From positions 22,706,733 through 22,770,732 of the forward strand of contig CM036764.1 in NCBI GenBank assembly GCA_020796225.1: a stretch of 64,000 nucleotides of DNA. The letters run 5' to 3'. The notes below the pieces were generated by a model. It saw only the letters and a program-made list of their open reading frames with translations. It did no database searches and was not told the origin of the DNA. The translations under genes and the position numbers were made by a program. Shown in pieces: positions 10,620 through 63,985 of this stretch; position 1 is the first letter of the stretch, and every line of letters begins with the position of its first letter. The DNA comes from Arion vulgaris (Eukaryota; Mollusca; Gastropoda; Stylommatophora; Arionidae).

Positions 10620-11130
10620 CTAAGACAGATCCGTGAACAAACAATTGAATACAATCAAAGTAAACAACTTATATTTATAGACTAAGAAAACGCATTTGAT
10701 AGAGTAAACAGGTGAAAACTATGGAAGATCCTTCAAGAATATGGCGTCCAGGGACAACTATTAGGCAATATCATGGCCTTATATCAAGATAGCCAGAGTA
10801 CAGTAAGAACAACAGAAGGAATGACCGACTGGTTCTCCATTACATCAGGTGTTAGACAAAGTTGTGTCCTCTCACCACTACTCTTTATGCATATATGGAT
10901 TAACTCAAGAGTCAAATTCAGATAATGATGAAATAAATGAACTGTTGTTTGCAGATGATCAGTGTCTGATACATCAAAATGAACAAGATCTACATCATAT
11001 TGACATCTTGAACAAAAATTGTGTAAAACATGACATGAAAATCAACAACACTAAAACAGAAATAATGAATATGGGAAGAAAACATAATAATCTAGACATC
11101 CATGTCAATGGCACTAAAATAAACCAAGTG
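10620..11130 (+). pseudogene. LINE-L reverse transcriptase domain, broken
   Basis: Plus-strand translation shows the three palm motifs in order: an F-I-D-x-E-N-A-F-D-R-V motif A near 10670-10705 (with one stop), SGVRQSCVLSPLLF as motif B near 10846-10890, and LLFADDQ as motif C near 10945-10965. The aspartate pair of motif C is retained. A frameshift separates motif B from motif C, and stops occur before motif A. The spacing matches non-LTR retrotransposon reverse transcriptases. Confidence 0.8.
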
Positions 11131-11139
11131 AAAGAATTC

Positions 11140-12638
11140 TCTCTCTCTCTTTTTCGTTCATTCTTCACGGCCAATTTCATCATTCTTTTTTGTGATGTAT
11201 AATTGGTCCACTGGCAAGAACGGAGTGATCTACGTCGATGGATGTGCGCCCATGGTGACTAGGCCCGCCCGTCCGATTTCAGTCAGCTTTTGATTTACTA
11301 GGGTGAACTTTCCTAGGGTACGATCCTTTCTGCCGACTATGTCGGCCCGGATCTACGCCTTTTCGATCAGCTTTGCCGTATATTTGGGCTTTGTGATCTG
11401 CACCAAGACAGTGAGCTACGATGTTATGACCATTCTGACTGTGAGGTCGTTCCGGATTAGAAACAATTCTCGGGGCTTATAATCTTGTCCTCGGACGGCG
11501 TCTTACTCGTATAAGACACCGTGTAAAGTATCTGCCTTCGCCAATGTTCGGACCCGGACAGCCTGTCAGATCTTTACATTGTCGACCTTACTTTACCGTT
11601 CAGTTTTGAGTTTGATCCGGAGTAGGAGCATTCTCAGCCTTTTCTAGACGGGCGTTGGTACGTGGCAATTTGCAGTTAGCCTCGGAAGACAACGGCCTGT
11701 GGCCAGGCACAGACAATGTAGAGGGTCGTTTCAATCGGCGCTAGCAGCGCAACTGAGGATTTTGCGCTCGCCACAATCACCCGCCCCAGTTCTTCCGGTG
11801 ATGTTAGTTGTGACTTCAATAGTACCTTGCCCTGTTGTTCCAAGGCTGGCAGTTCCGTTAGGCACCACCCACCTCAGTTCTTTCGGGGATGTTAATTGTT
11901 ATCTCAACAATACCTTGCACGGTCTTCCCAGGGAGGGTAGTTTCGTTATGCACTAGAATGCAACTTGTTGTTTTGCGCTCGGCAAACCATGCCCAGTACA
12001 TATATCTGCACCAGGCCGCCAATGCGGAGTCAGCTGCGATCTTTCCTCGTACCGACACGAGGGTAGACTTTTATTCGTTACGGATCTGACATTTATTTTT
12101 GCCAACGAGCTGGCAATGTTTGCCCCTTCCTCAGGGCTTCGAGCTTCGCCCAGCGTGGGCACATGTTTCTTCACTAGATGCGTCTCTCTTCCTTTCATAT
12201 TCACAAGTCTCCCCATCGACAGAGAAACTGGTGATTTGTGGCGGGACCTTTGGCTTATACGTCGAGTCTATGGAGTATATGGTATGGAGTCTCTTGCTCC
12301 GGAGATTACAATTTGCGTTCTTGCCCTGGTGCCTACCTCAGCATGTCCGTTAATTCCCTCTGGGCTGTCCCAGCTTTTTCCTTCGGTCGGGAGAGTCGAG
12401 CATTGATAGTCACTCTGGGAGTTCGCTCGTCTATGTTGCGAGCGGATCCCATCAAGCATGACTACCTTTACATCTCTACTTGCACCAAATTAGCTCTCCT
12501 GATCCCTGCCCCCTTAGCCAGACCAGAACCTGAGTATGTTTCCAGGGTCACCGCGTGGAGGTTGGGGCAGGGTCTTGGTTAGCGCTCCCTCGCTAACCCT
12601 GGCTCATGTTACCACAATGCCCATAAGCCTTTGACCCC
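11140..12638 (-). mobile_element. family C retroelement with 5' HDV-like ribozyme
   Basis: A 10-bp duplication, GAAAGAATTC, at 11130-11139 and 12639-12648 flanks this 1499-bp insert in LINE-L. On the minus strand the element starts at 12638 with GGGGTCA and ends at 11140 with a (GA)n tail. The tail resembles that of family B (AATTGG, GAAGAAYGAACG, then purine repeats). It is more GC-rich than its surroundings. Open frames of 60-117 codons occur on both strands but show no recognised domain. An imperfect duplication of about 100 bp lies near 11780-11950. It is best described as a non-autonomous retroelement. Confidence 0.85.
12501..12638 (-). ncRNA. predicted HDV-like self-cleaving ribozyme, copy 1
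   Basis: Minus strand from 12638. P1 pairs GGGGTCA (12638-12632) with TGACCCT (12550-12544), 7 bp with a G.U pair at the cleavage site. J1/2 carries a hairpin, GGTTAGCG with CGCTAACC. P2 pairs CCCTGCCCC with GGGGCAGGG over 9 bp. A short loop with TCCACG follows, then P1', then GGAAAC as the P1.1 region. GGCTAAG supplies the catalytic cytosine at 12517. P4 (around CAG-GTT-CTG) is weak. The P3 stem is only about 2 bp here. Position at the exact element 5' end matches known LINE ribozymes. Activity is untested. Confidence 0.65.
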
Positions 12639-13240
12639 GAAAGAATTCAAATACTTAGGAAGCATATTCACAGAAGACAGAAAACTGGATAGAGAGATAG
12701 AGGCTAGAGTGCAAAAGCAAATGCTGTAACCTACCAGCTAGCCCCACTGTTAAGGCACCCAAAAATTTCACAGGCAGCTAAGCAACAGATGATAAACAGC
12801 ATTTTATACCTACTTTGTGTTACCAGTGCCAAACATGGACATTGAGCAAAGCGCAGTCACAAAAATAACTACATGTGAAATGCGTTGCCTGTGAAAAGTT
12901 ACCAACAACACAAGAAAAGACAGAATCACTAACATCAGCATAAGAAAGAAAGTTGGCACAAAACCGTGCTTGAATTACATAGAGAAACAAAGAATGAAGT
13001 GGTTTGGCCACTTAATAAGAATGCATCCAAACTCCACAATATACATAGTCTTCTACAACAGAACATCGGGAAAGAAGGCAAGAGAAGACCACGGAAAAGA
13101 TGGTTAGATGGCGTAGCAGAATCCTGGGAAAGAGCAAAGTTAACAATCACACAAGCTACCAGAACAGCGCAAGACAAAAACAGAAAACCACGACACTGAG
13201 CAACAACCCGGTAGCAGTGTGACGACAAAAGAAGAAGAAG
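12639..13240 (+). pseudogene. LINE-L ORF2 C-terminal part
   Basis: After the family C insertion the LINE resumes at GAAAGAATTCAAATACTTAG. Translation fragments give FKYLGSIFTED, then KWFGHLIRMHPN near 12995-13035 and GRPRKRWLDGVA-like residues near 13080-13120, ending before the TGA at about 13198. This is the usual C-terminal organisation of this LINE group. Frameshifts are present: for example a CTGTGA stop where the 58-kb copy reads CTGAGA. Confidence 0.8.
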
Positions 13241-32582: not shown

Positions 32583-32800
32583 ATTGCACCAGGACTTATC
32601 CCCTCATGGTTTGGTCCCTCTCCACAGAAATGGCACGCCACCTACTGAGCATATTGCACAAAACACAAACACTGTAGCTCCTCCAACAAACCTTGGGATA
32701 TCTGGAAAAATGCACTCGGAACAGAATGACGTGGTCCGGATTGAACCCACAACCTTTGGGACGCAAAAGCAAGGGATTAACCACATATCCACAGAGAGCC
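32583..32800 (-). mobile_element. SINE family D, near complete
   Basis: On the minus strand the head reads GGGGCTCTCTGTGGATATGT (box A region, mutated) and GGTTCAATCCGGACCACG follows near 32745. The usual body ends at TGCAAT near 32583. The head is the seed of the tandem array that follows. Minus frames of about 62 codons across it are not genes. Confidence 0.88.
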
Positions 32801-33893
32801 CCTTAGATTGATGCTATGTTGATGTATTATTATTATTAACCACATATCCACAGAGAGCCCCTTAGATTGATGCTATGTTGATGTATTATTATTATTAACC
32901 ACATATCCACAGAGACCCCCTTAGATTGATGCTATGTTGATGTATTATTATTATTAACCACATATCCACAGAGACCCCCTTAGATTGATGCTATGTTGAT
33001 GTATTATTATTATTAACCACATATCCACAGAGAGCCCCTTAGATTGATGCTATGTTGATGTATTATTATTATTAACCACATATCCACAGAGAGCCCCTTA
33101 GATTGATGCTATGTTGATGTATTATTATTATTAACCACATATCCACAGAGAGCCCCTTAGATTGATGCTATGTTGATGTATTATTATTATTAACCACATA
33201 TCCACAGAGAGCCCCTTAGATTGATGCTATGTTGATGTATTATTATTATTAACCACATATCCACAGAGAGCCCCTTAGATTGATGCTATGTTGATGTATT
33301 ATTATTATTAACCACATATCCACAGAGAGCCCCTTAGATTGATGCTATGTTGATGTATTATTATTATTAACCACATATCCACAGAGACCCCCTTAGATTG
33401 CTGCTATGTTGATGTATTATTATTATTAACCACATATCCACAGAGAGCCCCTTAGATTGATGCTATGTTGATGTATTATTATTATTAACCACATATCCAC
33501 AGAGACCCCCTTAGATTGCTGCTATGTTGATGTATTATTATTATTAACCACATATCCACAGAGAGCCCCTTAGATTGATGCTATGTTGATGTATTATTAT
33601 TATTAACCACATATCCACAGAGAGCCCCTTAGATTGATGCTATGTTGATGTATTATTATTATTAACCACATATCCACAGAGAGCCCCTTAGATTGATGCT
33701 ATGTTGATGTATTATTATTATTAACCACATATCCACAGAGACCTCCTTAGATTGATGCTATGTTGATGTATTATTATTATTAACCACATATCCACAGAGA
33801 GCCCCTTAGATTGATGCTATGTTGATGTATTATTATTATTAACCACATATCCACAGAGAGCCCCTTAGATTGATGCTATGTTGATGTATTATT
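32776..33893. repeat. minisatellite, about 19 copies of 59 bp
   Basis: The unit begins TTAACCACATATCCACAGAG, continues AGCCCCTTAGATTGATGC and ends TATGTTGATG then TATTATTATTA. The first 26 bases are the head of the adjacent family D SINE, and the rest is flank. Copies are almost identical; the main variants are GAGAGCCCC and GAGACCCCC, plus TTGCTGC. This indicates recent amplification or homogenisation. Confidence 0.98.
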
Positions 33894-34072
33894 ATTTCTC
33901 TTCTAATGTTCAACATGTTTGACTTGTGTATTTCTAGCATTTAGTGTACCTACTTCACGTTTTGTTTAGCTTTTGTTTTAAAATAAAATATATTATCAAA
34001 TTTCCATGATGGTTTGTACACATTGACTTTGATTTCTGTCTGCAGAACATTCATACTTGAAAGTCCAATCTA

Positions 34073-43708
<9,636 letters not shown>

Positions 43709-55911: not shown

Positions 55912-57355
55912 AATTCTTTATACTCCATTCCGCTCTGTACCGATTGTACCAGGCGAGCTACTAAACAAAAATCTGACATACTCCATTCCGCTCTGTACCG
56001 ATTGTACCAGGCGAGCTACTAGAAAACCAAAATCTGACATACTCCATTCCGCTATGTACCGATTGTACCAGGCGAGCTACTAGAAAACCAAAATCTGACA
56101 TACTCTATTCCGCTCTGTACCGATTGTACCAGGCGAGCTACTACAAAACCAAAATCTGATATACTCCATTCCGCTCTGTACCGATTGTACCAGGCGAGCT
56201 ACTAGAAAACCAAAATCTGACATACTCCATTCCGCTCTGTACCGATTGTACCAGGCGAGCTACTAGACAACCAAAATCTGGTATACTCCATTCCACTCTG
56301 TACCGATTGTACCAGGCGAGCTACTAGAAAACCAAAATCTGATATACTCCATTCCGCTCTGTACCGATTGTACCAGGCGAGCTACTAGAAAACCAAAATC
56401 TGATATACTCCATTCCGCTCTGTACCGACTGTACCAGGCGAGCTACTAGACAACCAAAATCTGATATACTCCATTCCGTTCTGTACCGATTGTACCAGGC
56501 GAGCTACTAGACAACCAAAATCTGATATACTCCATTCCGTTCTGTACCGATTGTACCAGGCGAGCTACTAGAAAACCACAATCTGATATACTCCATTCCG
56601 CTCTGTACCGACTGTACCAGGCGAGCTACTAAACCAAAATCTGATATACTCCATTCCGCTCTGTACCGACTGTACCAGGCAAGCTACTAAACCAAAATCT
56701 GATATACTCCATTCCGCTCTGTACCGATTATACCAGGCGAGCTACCAAACCAAAATCTGATATACTCCATTCCGCTTTGTACCGATTGTACCAGGCGAGC
56801 TACTAAACCAAAATCTGATATACTCCATTCCGCTCTGTACCGATTGTACCAGGCGAGCTACTAAACCAAAATCTGATATACTCCATTCCGCTCTGTACCG
56901 ATTGTACCAGGCGAGCTACTAAACCAAAATCTGATATACTCCATTCCGCTCTTTACCGACTGTACCAGGCGAGCTACTAAACCAAAATCTGATATACTCC
57001 ATTCCGCTCTGTAACGACTGTACCTGTCGCGAGCTACTAGACAACCAAAATCTGATATACTCCATTCCGCTCTGTACCGATTGTACCAGGCGAGCTACTA
57101 GACAACCAAAATCTGATATACTCCATTCCGCTCTGTACCGATTGTACCAGGCGAGCTACTAAACCAAAATCTGATATACTCCATTCCGCTCTGTATCGAT
57201 TGTACCAGGCGAGCTACTAGACAACCAAAATCTAATATACTCCATTCCGCTCTGTATCGATTGTACCAGGCGAGCTACTAGACAACCAAAATCTGATATA
57301 CTCCATTCCGCTCTGTACCGATTGTACCTGTCGCGATACTAGAAAACCAAAATCT
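55912..57355. repeat. minisatellite, about 24 copies of 58-61 bp
   Basis: The core is ATACTCCATTCCGCTCTGTA, CCGATTGTACCAGGCGAGCT and ACCAAAATCTG. Long units have ACTAGAAAACC or ACTAGACAACC (61 bp), and short units have ACTAAACC (58 bp). Short units are clustered at about 56630-57000 and near 57160, so variants spread by local duplication. Two units carry CTGTCGCGA instead of CAGGCGA. Confidence 0.97.
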
Positions 57356-57359
57356 GATT

Positions 57360-58213
57360 TCTCACCCACGATGTGAGGGAAAACAGGATTGGAGAAAAGA
57401 AGAAAGAATTAATGTGTTCATCCATTTCTTCTGGAAATATATAAGCTGATACATTTGGTTGATCATATGCTGTACTTTAGCTAGTTGCTCTTCTGTATCG
57501 TTTCCTAGTATTCCACATTGGAATGGCATCAACTGCAAGACGACATTGCACAGTTTACACAGTTCAGACAGTAGGGTCTGTATATCTGGACATTTTTTCT
57601 CTGGATTTTTCTACGTATTTTTATAATTATCTTGGTTGATATTTGTCATTCACACCAAAACCTGGATATCCTCACTGCATAAATTGTGATCTGTATTCTC
57701 TCCTAATGAATATAACATACCATTGCTATAGTTCGTTCAACTTGTCATGTCCACAGATAAAAATGTGTATCTTTGTAACCATTTGATTAATTAACTTGAA
57801 AACTTGCATGTGAACTAAACATGTTCCGACGCTACAAAATATTTTTGCCATTCAAACAATCATACCATCTAGAAGTTTCCTTCTTTGTGCTATATATTTA
57901 ATGCGTCCATTGGCATGGTTGAAGAAAACTCATGTTAACAGCCATTTAATACATTGACGACAAAAATAGCAACATTCAGGACGAATTCCGTGGTTTTTTG
58001 AACGATTCTTGCATTTTTCATGCACCAAATAGAGTCGATCTTGAACATGGTAATTAAATGACGTCATAAGTGCGTCATAAACTTTCAATTAAAGGCGTAT
58101 ATAGAAATTATAAAAAGTGTGAAGTTATAACAAACATTGATATAACATTTCTAATGAGTTTGAAGTTACAATGCAAAAAGTGTCATTAATACTATACGGG
58201 CAGTTCCGCAAAG
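57360..58213. other. no recognised feature
   Basis: AT-rich sequence without frames or repeat-family matches. Confidence 0.4.
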
Positions 58214-58292
58214 AGGCACATATCTCTCTCTTTATCTCCGTCGTACTTTTTCGGCCATTTTGATCATTCTTATTGTGATATATAAACTGGTT

Positions 58293-59012
58293 ACAATAAT
58301 TGTGTGAAACATGACATGAAAATCAACAACACTAAAACAGAAATAATGAATATGGGAAGAAAACATAATAATCTAGACATCCATGTCAATGCACTAAAAT
58401 AAACCAAGTGAAAGAATTCAAATACTTAGGAAGCATATTCACAGAAGACGGAAAACTAGATAGAGAGATAGAGGCTAGAGTACAAAAGCAAATGCTGTAA
58501 CCTACCAGCTAGCCCCATTGTTAAGGCACCCAAAATTTCACAGGCAGCTAAGAAACAAATGATCAACAGCATTTTTATACCTACTTTGTGTTACCAGAGC
58601 CAAACATGGACATTGAGCAAAGCGCAGTCACAAAAATAACTACATGTGAAATGCGTTGCCTGAGAAAAGTTACCAACAACACAAGAAAAGACAGAATCAC
58701 CAACATCAGCATAAGAAAGAAAGTTGGCACAAAACCGTGCTTGAATTATATAGATAAACAAAGAATGAAGTGGTTTGGCCACTTAATAAGAATGCATCCA
58801 AACTCCACAGTATACAGAGTCTTCTACAACAGAACATCGGGAAAGAAGGCAAGAGGAAGACCACGGAAAAGATGGTTAGATGGCGTGGCAGCATCCTGTG
58901 AAAGAGCAAAGATAACAATCACACAAGCCACCAGAACAGCGCAAGACAAAAACAGAAAACCACGACACTGGGCAACAACCCGGTAGCAGTGTGACGACAA
59001 AAGAAGAAGAAG
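58293..59012 (+). mobile_element. LINE-L, 5'-truncated, nested in family C
   Basis: ATAAACTGGTT at 58282-58292 and 59013-59023 is an 11-bp duplication of family C sequence. The 720-bp insert is the 3' end of LINE-L and ends CAGTGTGACGACAAAAGAAG then (GAA)n. It closely resembles 11005-11130 plus 12640-13240, indicating relatively recent activity of this LINE. Confidence 0.95.
58588..58986 (+). pseudogene. LINE-L ORF2 C-terminus, open but truncated
   Basis: A 132-codon frame covers the end of ORF2. It contains TTCEMRCLRKV, ISIRKKVGTKPCLNYIDKQ, RMKWFGHLIRMHPN, SGKKARGRPRKRWLDGVA and an end at TTR. The first 15 or so codons are likely out of frame, since the adjacent frame reads YQSQTWTLSK, the usual upstream block. 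No reverse transcriptase motif remains, so it cannot act alone. Confidence 0.85.
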
Positions 59013-59885
59013 ATAAACTGGTTTTTTGCCAAGAACGCTTGTTTTACGTTACAATCTTAAGTATCATTTGGAGCTCTAGTGCTTGTCCTTCGGCGACGTG
59101 TCCGATTTCAACCAGCGTTTACTGGGTTCGCTCTCCGTCAACCTTTGACTGTCCCCAGCCAACCTGCAAGACAGTAGGTTGCTATTTTCTTTTAGGGTAT
59201 CGATCCTTAGACCACCTACCCTCCCGGGCTGTCGAGCATCATCTGGCCAGCTTGCCGGTCTTTTTGTGAACTATTTGGTTTTCCTTCCGTCCAGTTTTGT
59301 GTACGGTTTGCTCCGCTAGACTTTGATTGTCACCAATCCAACTACAAGGCAGTAGTAGTTCGCTACGAGCGGAAACGCGCACTGGATTCAAGTCTCTGCT
59401 GGGCTTTCCACTTTTCTGCAACTTTGGGTGGTCCACTCACCCTACGCCTGTCACTATCCCTCACCATCAGCGATGTGCACGTTTACCCACCGGTGGGCCC
59501 ACCGGTGCATCGTCCGCATTCGTGCTCGCTCTATCCTCGTGCCTGCCCCACCATTTCCATCAGTTCTCACGGTGATCACATTTACTAGCCTCTAGGCTGT
59601 CCGGACACTGGGCTGAACTCGGGCCCCCACCTCATCGTTCCGATTTTCGCCATATCTGGGTCCACATGCAACTCATCTCGGGCCCAAGTTTTGCTCCACG
59701 CGGGCCCACGTCCCTTCTCTGGATGCACCCTTCATCCCTTTATGGTTATTCCTTCAGCTTTTCCCATCGACCGGAAGAGACGTGCGTTAATAGTCACTAT
59801 GCGATTCCGCTCGTCTGTGTTGCGAGCGGATCTAATCCAATGTGACTACGTCTGCATCCCTCACCACGCTAGAATTGCTCTCCCT

Positions 59886-60018
59886 AGATCCATATCCGCT
59901 TAGCTAGACAGAAACTAATGTCTGTTACCAGGGTCACCACGTGGAGGTGGGGTAGGATCTGGATTAGTGACAGTTCACTAATCCTGGTGCGGCGTTGTCC
60001 GTATGCGCATTTGACCCC
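59886..60018 (-). ncRNA. predicted HDV-like self-cleaving ribozyme, copy 2
   Basis: Minus strand from 60018. P1 pairs GGGGTCA (60018-60012) with TGACCCT (59936-59930), again with G.U at the cleavage site. J1/2 has a hairpin GGATTAGTGA / TCACTAATCC. P2 pairs AGATCC with GGATCT (59891-59886), with weaker pairing inward. P3 is CCAC/GTGG around CTCCAC. P1.1 is supplied by GGTAAC after P1'. P4 is AGACA/TGTCT. AGCTAAG gives the catalytic cytosine at 59903. Position, order of helices and conserved residues match the HDV family. Confidence 0.72.
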
Positions 60019-60051
60019 AGGCACATATCGGTCATTTGTACCACAGTATAC

Positions 60052-60289
60052 TTCTTCTTCTGCGTTCTTACTAGATTGGGATTTCAGATTCTCTAATAAA
60101 GGCAGCCAGGTGCCTCAGATTATCAGCCATGCCATACAGTTTGTCTTGGATCCTGGTGTAAGTGGGCCACCTCTTTCTTCTCAAGTCTGCATACTAGGGG
60201 CAGATCTGTAGGATATGTTCTGTTGTCATACTCGCCAAGCCACAGGAGCACAGGTCATTGGTGCCTATTTTGAATTTAGTGTACAGGTT
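60052..60289 (-). mobile_element. LINE-N 3' end, 5'-truncated, with 13-bp target duplication
   Basis: TACCACAGTATAC at 60039-60051 and 60290-60302 bounds a 238-bp insert. The minus strand encodes NLYTKFKIGTNDLCSCGLAS, TTEHILQICP, then after one stop RRKRWPTYTRIQDKLYG and AAFIRESEIPI plus TAG. This is the cysteine-containing C-terminus of RNase H-type LINEs. A very short 3' end follows: TAAGAACGCAGAAGAAGAAG. That tail resembles families A and B. Confidence 0.88.
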
Positions 60290-60302
60290 TACCACAGTAT
60301 AC

Positions 60303-61660
60303 AAGAACCATAGTAAAGAGCTATTTTATTGTAGTGATACCCCCTACAACATATGTTAACACACGCACATTGTACCGAAGAAGTAGCGATTTGAAAAGAA
60401 CATCTCCAAGTAGCTCCACCATTGCCAATCCCAAGCCTGGACGCGAAAGGGGATGGCATTATGACATGGCAACTAACTTTAACTGTAATGTAAATTATTT
60501 TTAAAAAACCAATAATACAACTATGTCTATATTTTCTGTTTTTTTCCCATGAATCTATTGCAACTATCAACATTGCTCCCCATGTATGAGCTGGAATGAT
60601 ACGCCTTTGAATGAGACTTGACATCAAATGTCATATTGGTGCATTTAGTGTAAAAACTAAAATTATGTATTAGACTCGCCAAATATGCGGCCAACATCAA
60701 AGAAAACCGCTATATTACAAAATCCAGGTTTTCTATAGCAATTTCTTCAATCAGACATTTGCGTCGGTATAATTCTAAGATTGGGTGCAAAGTTTCGCTA
60801 CTGTGGAATAGATGGTTTTGCTACAATTCGCATTGGACTGTGGGCATGCGTTGTTGAACGGACTATAGTTTTAGTTTTGGCTTTTTCTACCTATCATTTC
60901 CTTCTACCTGTTTCTCGTCTTGTTTTTCTTAAAATATGTCACCCATTTTGTTTTGGTCATTACTCAAATAAAAGTGCGGGTCTACTACAATACACTGAGC
61001 CTCATGGTATGAAAACTGACATTTTACATACTTTAAAAAAATTACACTAAAATTATTTGAACTTTTGAAACTTGGACTGATACAAAATACTTTTCAGAGC
61101 CAAATCTGAAAATCAGTTTTTGAATGAATGTATGGTGTCCTCAAGGGACATCAGTAAATCGTTAATCATAGTCTCTGAAATTGTTGGAATTCATATAATT
61201 TAATGCTACCAAATGATATTCATTGGACAAACAGTTTGACTGCAGGCTAACTCTTCTACAAATAATGGTAGAAAGATTGGCGAATGGAAATGCAATCTTT
61301 GTGAATGCTGTTGTTATATAATAGTGGTATGTAACCGAGAAATCATTGTCTTGTCAGGATTATGTCGAAGTATCATTACAAACTGAAAAAGAAATACAAA
61401 TGTTGGGATATCTTGTGATGTTGGGATAATGTTGGTATGACGGGGCCCCAGCCGTTTCCTTTTCTAACAGTTCACTCACCGCCTATTTAAGCACTCCCTG
61501 TATTGTCCAAACCAACGTTGGCTTTTTCTGTTCTACATCCACCTACCCTTCTGGTCCTTCCAGCCACTACAAACTTAGTGCAATATTGCAATTTACGTGT
61601 CTTTAGTCCATATCACCTGCTTTCCATACATTAACATCCACAGAAGTGTTTCCAGGTTGG
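60303..61660. other. no recognised feature
   Basis: Open frames at 60289-60627 (minus) and 60781-61050 (plus) have no recognised domain or splice context. Confidence 0.4.
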
Positions 61661-62629: not shown

Positions 62630-63985
62630 GTTGGAGACCTTTAAGAAGAATCCTGCAAGTTCTCTGGCCAAATACAGAAGCAAATGAAGAGTATTAATAG
62701 GAAGAAAATGTGCATCCGTGGAGACCATCATTAAAAGACGCAACAGCAAATACATTTGGTTCTCACTGAACAGTTGACTTGTCAAAAAATATATGCCAAG
62801 AGTGAATCTCTGTGGATAAGCAAGTGAAAGGACTGATTCTATGAAGTATCTGGGTGCAAGATTCGACCAATGTCTAGCATTCAAAGAAGTCATTGACACT
62901 TTTGTAACCAAAGCCTGGTAGAATTTGTCAGCAATAAAATGTATGGCTGCATATTTTAAAAAGGGATTTTAAGGCCGAATGATTGACTTCATTGCACCGG
63001 ATTTTACCCCATATGGCTCGGTCCCTCTCCGCAGAAATGGCACACCACCTGGCGAGAGTACTGTACAAAGCATGAACTCCGTAGCTCCGGCAACAGCCCT
63101 AGGGTCTTGGGGGAAAATGCACTCGTGAAAAGAACGGCGTGGTCCGAATTGGAACCTACGACATTCGACTCGCAAGGCAAAGACATAAGCACTTAGACAC
63201 AGAGACTTCCTTAATCTCACAAGGTAAACCACCTAGACAAAGAGACCCAGTATTGGATAACATATTTGTCTTACACAAAAGATTTCCATTCTTACCGTTT
63301 TGCCATCGTTCTATTATTTGTTTCCCACGTCAGTCCACAATCTTTCAACTCTCTTTAAAAAATCTGAACTGGTCTTACAGTGGATACCAGCACACCGTGG
63401 CATACCAGGAAATGAAAAGGCTGACAAACTCGCACGGGCTGGAGGGAGCCTAAACACAACACCACCCAACACAAAGCTTTACAGAAGCAAAGATTCTCCT
63501 AAAACAATCCAGAAAAATTATGCGGAGAAAAACAAATGGAGGATACAACCCAGAGCAAGACAGTATAAATACACTAAACAGAAAAGCACAGACCACAGTC
63601 TTCAGACTTAGAACGGACACTGCAGTCTCAGAGCAGACCTCTACAGAATGGGTCTCAGGAATTCGGCCGCCTGCACCTGTGAAGCACCTTAGCAGTCCAC
63701 AGAGCACATCCTGCAAGACTGCCCCAGTCTGAGTAGTGTGAGAATGGAGATCTGCCAACAAAACAGCCATACAAGACAAACTATGGGGGACCGGCGAAGA
63801 CCTCAAGCGCACCGCCCTGTTTATGACACATACCGGAGTAGACGCATAGCAGAAGTTGATTGCAGAAGAGGAACTCTCTTTTCACCGTTCTTCTACGTGT
63901 TTCCTTTGAACTTTCATGCTTTCCTTTCCCATTCACTTTCATCGAAGACCCATACGACATAGGACATACATGCCAACCCACCTCC
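62630..63985 (+). pseudogene. RNase H-type LINE (LINE-N group) pol pseudogene
   Basis: Near 62838-62945 a frame reads SMKYLGARFDQCLAFKEVID and LSAIKCMAA, equivalent to the block at 26770-26650. After a nested SINE, LQWIPAHRGIPGNEKADKLA near 63373-63432 is the C-terminal RNase H motif with its histidine and aspartate. FRLRTDTA and, one frame over, GHCSLRADLYRMG, CTCEAP and EHILQDCP near 63600-63725 form the cysteine-containing tail. Frameshifts break the reading. The copy runs close to the window end, so its 3' terminus was not fixed. Confidence 0.8.
62972..63220 (-). mobile_element. SINE family D nested in a LINE pseudogene
   Basis: The body TTGCACCGGATTTTACCCCA and GGCTCGGTCCCTCTCCGCAG leads to the head complement CTCGCAAGGCAAAGACATAA, CACTTAGACACAGAGACT. 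Just beyond it, 63217-63250 repeats the head (CTCACAAGGTAAACCACC, TAGACAAAGAGACCC), a partial tandem duplication. Confidence 0.9.

What the first reader, a model, noticed from the sequence alone, without database searches (positions are those of the whole stretch)
59886..60018. HDV-like self-cleaving ribozyme at the exact 5' end of a non-autonomous retroelement
Target duplications fix the family C 5' end at 60018 and 12638 independently. From that base, both copies show the HDV order: P1 5' strand, J1/2, P2, P3, P1' 3' strand, P1.1, P4, catalytic J4/2, P2'. P1 is 7 bp with a G.U pair at the cleavage site, GG plus AAC follow P1', and GCTAAG supplies the catalytic C. Known HDV-like ribozymes sit at 5' ends of R2, RTE and related LINEs (established). 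A 1-1.5 kb element without a recognised frame, with a GA tail related to local SINEs, carrying one may be new. That it cleaves is inference.
Basis: partly seen in the sequence, partly recalled or inferred. Interest (0 to 1): 0.92.

Follow-up and report, generated by a model that had tools for sequence, protein, structure and literature searches.

The report
Ribozyme-headed non-coding retroposon family
The start of a gene-less jumping element is folded like a self-cutting RNA related to the hepatitis delta ribozyme, and over a thousand such starts sit in this genome; this extends a known trick of mobile elements to a large new family, although cutting itself was not tested.

Summary
Both copies (A, 60018; B, 12638; minus strand) begin at GGGGTC flanked by target duplications, and both carry the HDV-like order. 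In the host genome a pattern joining both P1 strands, L3 and the P1.1 GG occurs 1185 times (reversed control 0). Rfam's drz-agam-1 model finds 11 relatives above cut-off, best 44.9 bits, and none in 14 control genomes. The window copies themselves stay below cut-off (A 13.0, B 34.8 bits). In 16 chosen copies 93.4% of cells pair, against 19-46% with slid partners, with double changes at six pairs. B-type copies are scattered insertions: 21 of 41 have 9-15 bp duplications and purine tails.

Correction: copy A, the finding itself, is a passenger. It inserted once into a TIR DNA transposon (57726-60868), which carried it to other loci; an empty transposon copy was seen.

Not shown: self-cleavage, and the partner LINE. 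Gene-less elements with a 5' HDV-like ribozyme are already known (R2 SIDEs, NARTc/SIDER), so this is a new, abundant, modular variant of a known kind.

The parts
58225..60018 (-). Element A, about 1.06 kb without its nested insert; purine (GA) tail at its 3' end
   Evidence: Duplication GATATGTGCCT on both sides; 28 copies compared
59886..60018 (-). HDV-like ribozyme of A: P1 60018-60013 / 59935-59930; J1/2 hairpin 59983-59976 / 59969-59962; P2 59960-59949 / 59897-59886 (imperfect); P3 59948-59946 / 59938-59936; L3 59945-59939; P1.1 59944-59943 / 59929-59928; P4 59923-59919 / 59910-59906; J4/2 GCTAAG 59904-59899 with candidate catalytic C 59903
   Evidence: Read; covariation; weak Rfam score for this copy; HDV-type models at 25.5-28.1 bits in 6 of 18 sister loci, none over gathering
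60019..60029 (-). Target duplication of A, 5' side
   Evidence: both arms, some with changes, seen in 18 of 28 A copies
58214..58224 (-). Target duplication of A, 3' side
58288..59024 (+). Repeat D nested in A: 3' end of a LINE with a (GAA)n tail, opposite strand
   Evidence: (matches 13241-12639 and 11139-11012); RVT_1 E 1.9e-6, 28.2 bits under a cut-off of 29.6, in the other copy of D
57726..60868 (-). TIR DNA transposon X that carries A; TIR CTATAGTCCGTTCAAC...; also holds a LINE 3' fragment (about 60290-60051)
   Evidence: an X copy with neither LINE fragment nor A lies 3.0 kb downstream of the A start in L058
11140..12638 (-). Element B, 1499 bp, non-coding, (GA)n tail, inserted in another copy of repeat D
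12499..12638 (-). HDV-like ribozyme of B: P1 12638-12633 / 12549-12544; P3 12562-12560 / 12552-12550; L3 12559-12553; P1.1 GG 12543-12542; GCTAAG with candidate catalytic C 12517; P2' downstream
   Evidence: drz-agam-1 34.8 bits, E 2.2e-5; sister copies above gathering
12639..12648 (-). Target duplication of B, 5' side (GAATTCTTTC)
11130..11139 (-). Target duplication of B, 3' side
42772..42998 (-). Short copy of the A 3' module with GA tail (5'-truncated copy or related SINE)

Best explanation
A and B belong to a large, modular family of non-coding, LINE-dependent retroposons whose 5' end is an HDV-like self-cleaving ribozyme with a hairpin-bearing J1/2. The RNA is probably made as part of a longer transcript, or from an internal promoter. 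The ribozyme cuts just before G1, leaving a 5'-OH element RNA that starts at GGGGUC. A LINE reverse transcriptase recognises the 3' module with its (GA)n or (GAA)n tail and copies the RNA by target-primed reverse transcription, giving a 9-15 bp duplication and restoring a full ribozyme at every full-length copy. Shown: fold conservation with covariation, a common 5' end at different sites, tails, duplications, a shared 5' module on different bodies. Inferred: cleavage, the helper LINE, the promoter. Copy A arose this way once and then spread as cargo of DNA transposon X.
For: drz-agam-1: 11 genome matches over cut-off, best 44.9 bits, from 56 scored of 84232 first-look candidates; 0 of 14 control genomes. 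12 of 20 B-type loci hit at E <= 0.1, two over gathering. 1185 exact matches to P1 + L3/P3 + P1' + GG, reversed control 0. 16 sequences: 93.4% paired, slid partners 19.1-45.5%, 6 pairs and 19 cells with double changes, covariation score reached by 0 of 500 shuffles. P2 in one 8-bp register: 8/8 in 35, at least 7/8 in 51 of 62 parsed rows, 11 of 73 not parsed. J1/2 hairpin pairs A-U and U-A in 24 of 28 A copies, G-C and C-G in 19 of 30 B and 8 of 13 others; 8 of 71 not parsed. Start hexamer GGGGTC in 32 of 43 non-A copies. Only one pair of the 43 (L028, L037) has homologous flanks that meet the junction within about 3 bp of the same place. Duplications with purine tails in 21 of 41.
Against: Neither window copy reaches Rfam's gathering score; A alone scores 13.0-15.5 bits, and 12 of 18 A-type loci show no HDV-type model at E <= 1. 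P1, P3, P1.1 and P4 hardly vary, so covariation supports P2 and the J1/2 hairpins but not the rest. Two of the five measures are weaker: pairs with double changes were reached by 22 of 500 shuffles, further pair types by 454 of 500. The structure was taken from one of the rows, which favours it over slid versions. My strict descriptor found neither window copy. 8 of 58 loci lack C[T/A]AAG. Most A copies have a C x A mismatch in P2. Predicted folding energy of the first 200 bases is ordinary in three copies (z 0.1, -1.6, 0.0), though that method ignores pseudoknots. Loci were top hits to queries that start at G1, so 5'-truncated copies are under-sampled. No partner LINE with this ribozyme was found. 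No cleavage data.
Confidence: 0.85

Rival explanations
1. The fold is an inherited relic or a protein-binding 5' structure that no longer cleaves; the sharp 5' end is set by transcription start at G1.
For: Window copies are degenerate; no cleavage data; ordinary folding energy.
Against: The G.U first pair, P1.1 GG and J4/2 C are kept with P1 in most copies looked at, and the 5' module is shared by elements with otherwise different bodies.
Confidence: 0.11
2. On origin (compatible with the main reading): these are internal-deletion derivatives (SIDEs) of an autonomous LINE that has the same ribozyme at its 5' end.
For: R2 SIDEs and NARTc/RIME are of this kind (PMC3414825 abstract; PMC4035085 passages); HDV-like ribozymes at LINE 5' ends are cited for several clades (PMC3774820 passages).
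Against: Of three LINE types looked at, an RTE-like one has a twister-P1-like 5' end; for D and an RNase-H LINE no intact 5' end was recognised in the stretches held, so they are no test. The bodies show no long shared frame by inspection.
Confidence: 0.35
3. A is a multi-copy retroposon with a fixed insertion target (site-specific like R2).
For: 28 of 28 A copies have the same 5' flank, ending in GATATGTGCCT or near variants.
Against: The shared block reaches about -850 and +1585 in most copies (3' flank shared in 25 of 27 besides the window's) and ends in inverted repeats next to differing sequence in the 7 and 8 ends printed; an empty X exists.
Confidence: 0.02
4. Chance resemblance to the HDV fold in a GC-rich repeat.
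For: Shuffled windows gave 3 descriptor hits in 15 runs while the real window gave none.
Confidence: 0.02

Closest known systems
drz-agam-1 HDV-like ribozyme (Rfam RF01787; its link to LINEs is recalled)
   Same: P2/P3/L3/P4/J4-2 arrangement; relatives score up to 44.9 bits over a cut-off of 37
   Different: Sits on non-coding elements; hairpins in J1/2; window copies score below cut-off
R2 SIDEs of Drosophila (PMC3414825, abstract)
   Same: 5' HDV-like ribozyme, no gene, 3' end read by a LINE protein, target-primed insertion
   Different: R2 SIDEs derive from R2 (or R2/R1) and sit in rRNA genes; here the bodies were not recognised as LINE remnants and sites differ
NARTc, RIME and SIDER of trypanosomatids (PMC4035085, passages)
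   Same: Short retroposons with an HDV-like ribozyme (Pr77) at the 5' end, several shown to cleave; part of a wider LINE/SINE set
   Different: There the module also acts as a promoter and the partners (L1Tc, ingi) are known; the sequences were not compared here
Animal retrozymes (PMC7761336, passages)
   Same: Non-coding, ribozyme-bearing, SINE-like elements in animals
   Different: Hammerhead ribozymes and circular RNAs; here one HDV-like ribozyme at the 5' end
V-domain SINEs and the MER6 DNA transposon (PMC6887750, title and start of abstract in a listing)
   Same: A retroposon sequence spread with a DNA transposon, as for A in X
   Different: Different SINE and transposon

Membership tests
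HDV-like self-cleaving ribozymes | Nested double pseudoknot P1-P2-P3-P1.1-P4 in order | tested here: met
   Helices present in order; 93.4% of cells paired in 16 chosen sequences
HDV-like self-cleaving ribozymes | Catalytic C in J4/2 and GG for P1.1 | tested here: met
   GCTAAG in 16 of 16 and GG in 14 of 16; over 58 loci C[T/A]AAG is found in 50
HDV-like self-cleaving ribozymes | Rfam gathering score for RF01787 | tested here: inconclusive
   Window copies fail; 11 genome relatives and 2 of 20 B-type loci pass
HDV-like self-cleaving ribozymes | Self-cleavage 5' of G1 | not testable with these tools
   Needs an RNA assay
LINE-dependent non-autonomous retroposons | Target duplications, 3' simple tail, scattered sites | tested here: met
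   21 of 41 copies (24 passed, 3 dropped as repeat artefacts; L024's duplication is a GATA run); one possible shared site among 43 copies
LINE-dependent non-autonomous retroposons | No reverse transcriptase frame | tested here: met
   Longest stop-to-stop frame 130-196 aa in 30 B-type copies, antisense in 27; the frames were not run against Pfam
LINE-dependent non-autonomous retroposons | Partner LINE with the same 3' end | tested here: inconclusive
   Matches to LINE 3' ends are short and tail-like; one stronger match (E 4e-7, L080) lies away from the LINE end on the other strand
R2 SIDE | Insertion in rRNA genes with an R2 or R1 3' end | tested here: not met
   Varied flanks; 28S sequence itself was not compared
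Classical SINE | tRNA-derived Pol III head | tested here: not met
   ARAGORN: 0 tRNA genes in 12 loci, a test that can miss decayed tRNA heads; the element starts with the ribozyme module
NARTc/SIDER (Pr77) | Pr77 sequence and L1Tc/ingi partner | not tested
   No Pr77 sequence was compared

The most novel reading that the evidence does not exclude
A superfamily of long non-coding retroposons in which a portable HDV-like ribozyme takes the place of a SINE's Pol III head: the ribozyme module is exchanged between unrelated bodies, defines the 5' end of RNAs cut out of any host transcript, and several LINEs that read (GA)n/(GAA)n tails mobilise it, in a genome whose RTE-like LINE uses a twister-type ribozyme instead.
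Probability: 0.3. Interest if true: 0.75.

Novelty: new variant of a known kind. Interest (0 to 1): 0.56.

Why it matters
It puts more than a thousand candidate HDV-like ribozymes into one eukaryote genome, on elements that code for nothing. That gives a natural library for testing ribozyme sequence space, for asking how a gene-less element gets its 5' end when it inserts at many sites, and for finding the helper LINE. It also carries a warning: the copies of one subfamily came from a DNA transposon, not from its ribozyme.

Tried and rejected
Rejected: site-specific insertion of A; the RTE-like LINE as partner, since its 5' end matches twister-P1 and its tail is (ATT)n in the one copy read to its end; D and the RNase-H LINE as shown partners, since no intact 5' end was recognised in the copies fetched. 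Folding z-scores of 200-base pieces were mostly near zero, with exceptions (L061 at 450: -5.6 sense and -3.5 antisense; L010 at 1050: -3.1 sense, at 0: -3.0 antisense), so a structured body was not pursued. No tRNA head. My strict HDV descriptor hit neither window copy. Alignment A2 (23 rows) misplaced P1 of the C group, so L059-L062 were left out of the 16-row count; L020, L069 and one L021 copy were also not included, for no tested reason. Three rows (L063, L065, L066) stay shifted in P1 there and lower its score. In one search, 24 of 41 passed the duplication test; I dropped L015, L017 and L066, whose match lies in repeated flank without a purine tail. On checking, an earlier claim of mine that all 30 B-type flanks differ had to be softened: L028 and L037 lie in the same repeat within about 3 bp. 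Rows count the window copies twice (as A_win/L001 and B_win/L009).

A species name was not established: 1.52 Gb and large contigs up to C26 resemble Arion vulgaris (1.54 Gb, 26 scaffolds; PMC9392753 passages), an inference only. Whether the family exists in other species did not complete; I had no eukaryote collection beyond G000. Literature searches. I saw no report of this family in their listings, but two key papers on HDV-like ribozymes in LINEs (PMC3308841, PMC3159031) are not held; I know them only from memory and from other papers' reference lists.

Full report
What was checked. The window lies in a genome of 1.52 Gb (G000, contig C12). Both elements are on the minus strand. Element A starts at 60018 and element B at 12638, each with GGGGTC as its first bases. 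A has GATATGTGCCT on both sides and B has GAATTCTTTC. A contains a nested 737-bp piece of a LINE on the other strand (58288-59024); B sits inside another copy of that same LINE. Without the insert A is about 1.06 kb; B is 1499 bp. In 30 B-type copies the longest stop-to-stop frames are 130-196 aa, antisense in 27 of them.

The fold. From G1 both copies read: P1 GGGGTC(A), a J1/2 of about 50-60 nt with hairpins, P2, P3 ACC, L3 TCCACGY, P3' GGT, P1' GACCCT, GG, P4, GCTAAG, P2'. The first P1 pair is G.U. P1 is 6 bp; a seventh pair would use the T that P3 also uses. Rfam gives B 34.8 bits for drz-agam-1 (gathering 37; E 2.2e-5 in 401 bases), and A only 13.0 bits for the same model and 15.5 for HDV-F-prausnitzii. 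At gathering threshold the window has no hit. A strict home-made descriptor missed both copies and gave 3 hits in 15 shuffled windows. On the two copies alone the case would be suggestive for B and weak for A.

The family. DNA searches returned 40 scored matches for each query out of 3437 and 4656 first-look candidates. The RNA family search scored 56 of 84232 first-look candidates and found 11 matches, all over the cut-off, best 44.9 bits (L059), against 0 of 14 control genomes. A pattern with both P1 strands, P3/L3 and GG matched 1185 times, the reversed control 0 times. Of 20 B-type loci scanned with all Rfam families, 12 gave drz-agam-1 at E <= 0.1 and two passed gathering. Of 18 A-type loci, 6 gave an HDV-type model at E <= 1, none over gathering.

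Covariation. On 16 sequences (A, B, D, E and F groups, the two window copies among them; the C group was left out because MAFFT misplaced its P1, and three further rows were not included) the named structure has 93.4% standard pairs over 633 cells. With the 3' partners slid by 1-3 columns the figure is 19.1-45.5%; the structure was taken from one row, which favours it. Six pairs and 19 cells show changes on both sides (22 and 0 of 500 shuffles as high). The covariation score 0.103 was reached by 0 of 500; further pair types were not raised (454 of 500). Double changes fall in P2 (G-C to A-U) and in the J1/2 hairpins. P1, P3, P1.1 and P4 scarcely vary, so they are conserved rather than covarying. 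In a parse of all copies P2 pairs 8 of 8 in 35 and at least 7 of 8 in 51 of 62 rows, with 11 of 73 not parsed. The J1/2 hairpin reads A-U and U-A in 24 of 28 A copies and G-C and C-G in 19 of 30 B and 8 of 13 other copies; 8 of 71 were not parsed. Because A copies descend from one insertion, A against B is one comparison, not many; L067 is a further one with its own sequence in P2 and the hairpins.

Retroposition. In the B-type loci homology starts at G1 or within 2 nt. Of 43 non-A copies 32 begin GGGGTC exactly, the others with one or two differences in the first six bases. Comparing their 150-bp flanks, six pairs show some similarity, but only L028 and L037 meet the junction at nearly the same place of the same repeat. 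In 41 B-type and newer copies 24 have a duplication of at least 8 bp at p <= 0.05; three lie in repeated flanks and were dropped, leaving 21 with 9-15 bp and purine-rich tails. Loci came from searches whose query begins at G1 or that need the ribozyme, so truncated copies are under-counted. Duplications often begin AG or GA (16 of the 24), continuing the tail, as expected when the RNA tail anneals at the nick (inference). Bodies are modular: A and B align only near the 5' end (from base 52) and at the 3' end, and L068 joins a B-like 5' part to an A-like 3' part. That the ribozyme module is the shared part is what a working 5' processing signal would give.

What copy A really is. All 28 A copies examined have the same 5' flank. 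In most the shared block reaches about -850 and +1585, and 25 of the 27 copies besides the window's share the 3' flank too. The block ends in inverted repeats CTATAGTCCGTTCAAC... next to differing sequence in the ends printed, so it is a TIR DNA transposon, X (window 57726-60868). X also holds a LINE 3' fragment with its own duplication just upstream of A. An X copy with neither is seen in L058, 3.0 kb downstream of that locus's A, and 18 of 28 A copies still show both duplication arms around A. A therefore most likely retroposed once and was then multiplied by X. The 5' end at 60018 stands, but the A copies are not independent evidence for retroposition.

Mechanism. The most likely route is co-transcription, ribozyme cleavage before G1, recognition of the 3' module and (GA)n/(GAA)n tail by a LINE protein, and target-primed reverse transcription. 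Cleavage and helper are inferred. An RTE-like LINE of this genome (clade name recalled; L074, L071) has instead a twister-P1-like sequence at its 5' end (43.7 and 38 bits, gathering 67.2) and an (ATT)n tail in L074, so it is an unlikely helper. The LINE of repeat D and an RNase-H-bearing LINE have (GAA)n-type tails, but no intact 5' end was recognised in the copies fetched and their 3' ends match the family only in the tail.

Compared with what is known. R2 SIDEs carry the R2 ribozyme and an R2 or R1 3' end (PMC3414825, abstract). NARTc, RIME and SIDER belong to a set with an HDV-like ribozyme, several members of which were shown to cleave (PMC4035085, passages). HDV-like ribozymes at LINE 5' ends are cited for R2, R4, L1 and RTE (PMC3774820, passages). 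So the kind is known. What differs is abundance, a body not recognised as a LINE remnant, no fixed target, and a hairpin-bearing J1/2. The searches listed no report of such a family; many relevant papers are not in that library.

Noticed in passing
L074 1028-1082; L071 1096-1150 and 2393-2447; L042 776-830: RTE-like LINE copies begin with a sequence matching the twister-P1 ribozyme (43.7, 38, 38, 28.7 bits; gathering 67.2), so this genome seems to use two ribozyme classes at retroelement 5' ends. PMC7761336 mentions truncated twisters in RTEs as work in preparation.
   Followed up: partly
window 57726-60868; L058, 3.0 kb downstream of its A start: A TIR DNA transposon carrying two nested retroelements (a LINE 3' fragment and element A), with a copy elsewhere that has neither.
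   Followed up: yes
window 63261-63860: Decayed LINE 3' part with an RNase H match (PF00075, E 9.5e-8) and at least 150 scored relatives in the genome.
   Followed up: partly
window 41380-41560, 42772-42998, and several 45-60 bp matches: Local SINE-like repeats share 3' parts of A and B; two of them begin at CCTGCTG.
   Followed up: partly
window 11778-11953: An 88-bp direct duplication (76%) inside B, also present in related copies such as L061-L066.
   Followed up: no
L012 233-440: A U2 snRNA-like sequence (36.4 bits, gathering 46), possibly a pseudogene.
   Followed up: no
L021 542-621, 1557-1636, 2472-2552: Three ribozyme matches within about 2 kb, on both strands: neighbouring or nested family copies.
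   Followed up: partly
window 32776-33896 and 55919-57358: Long tandem arrays with units of 59 and 61 bp (19 and 24 copies).
   Followed up: no
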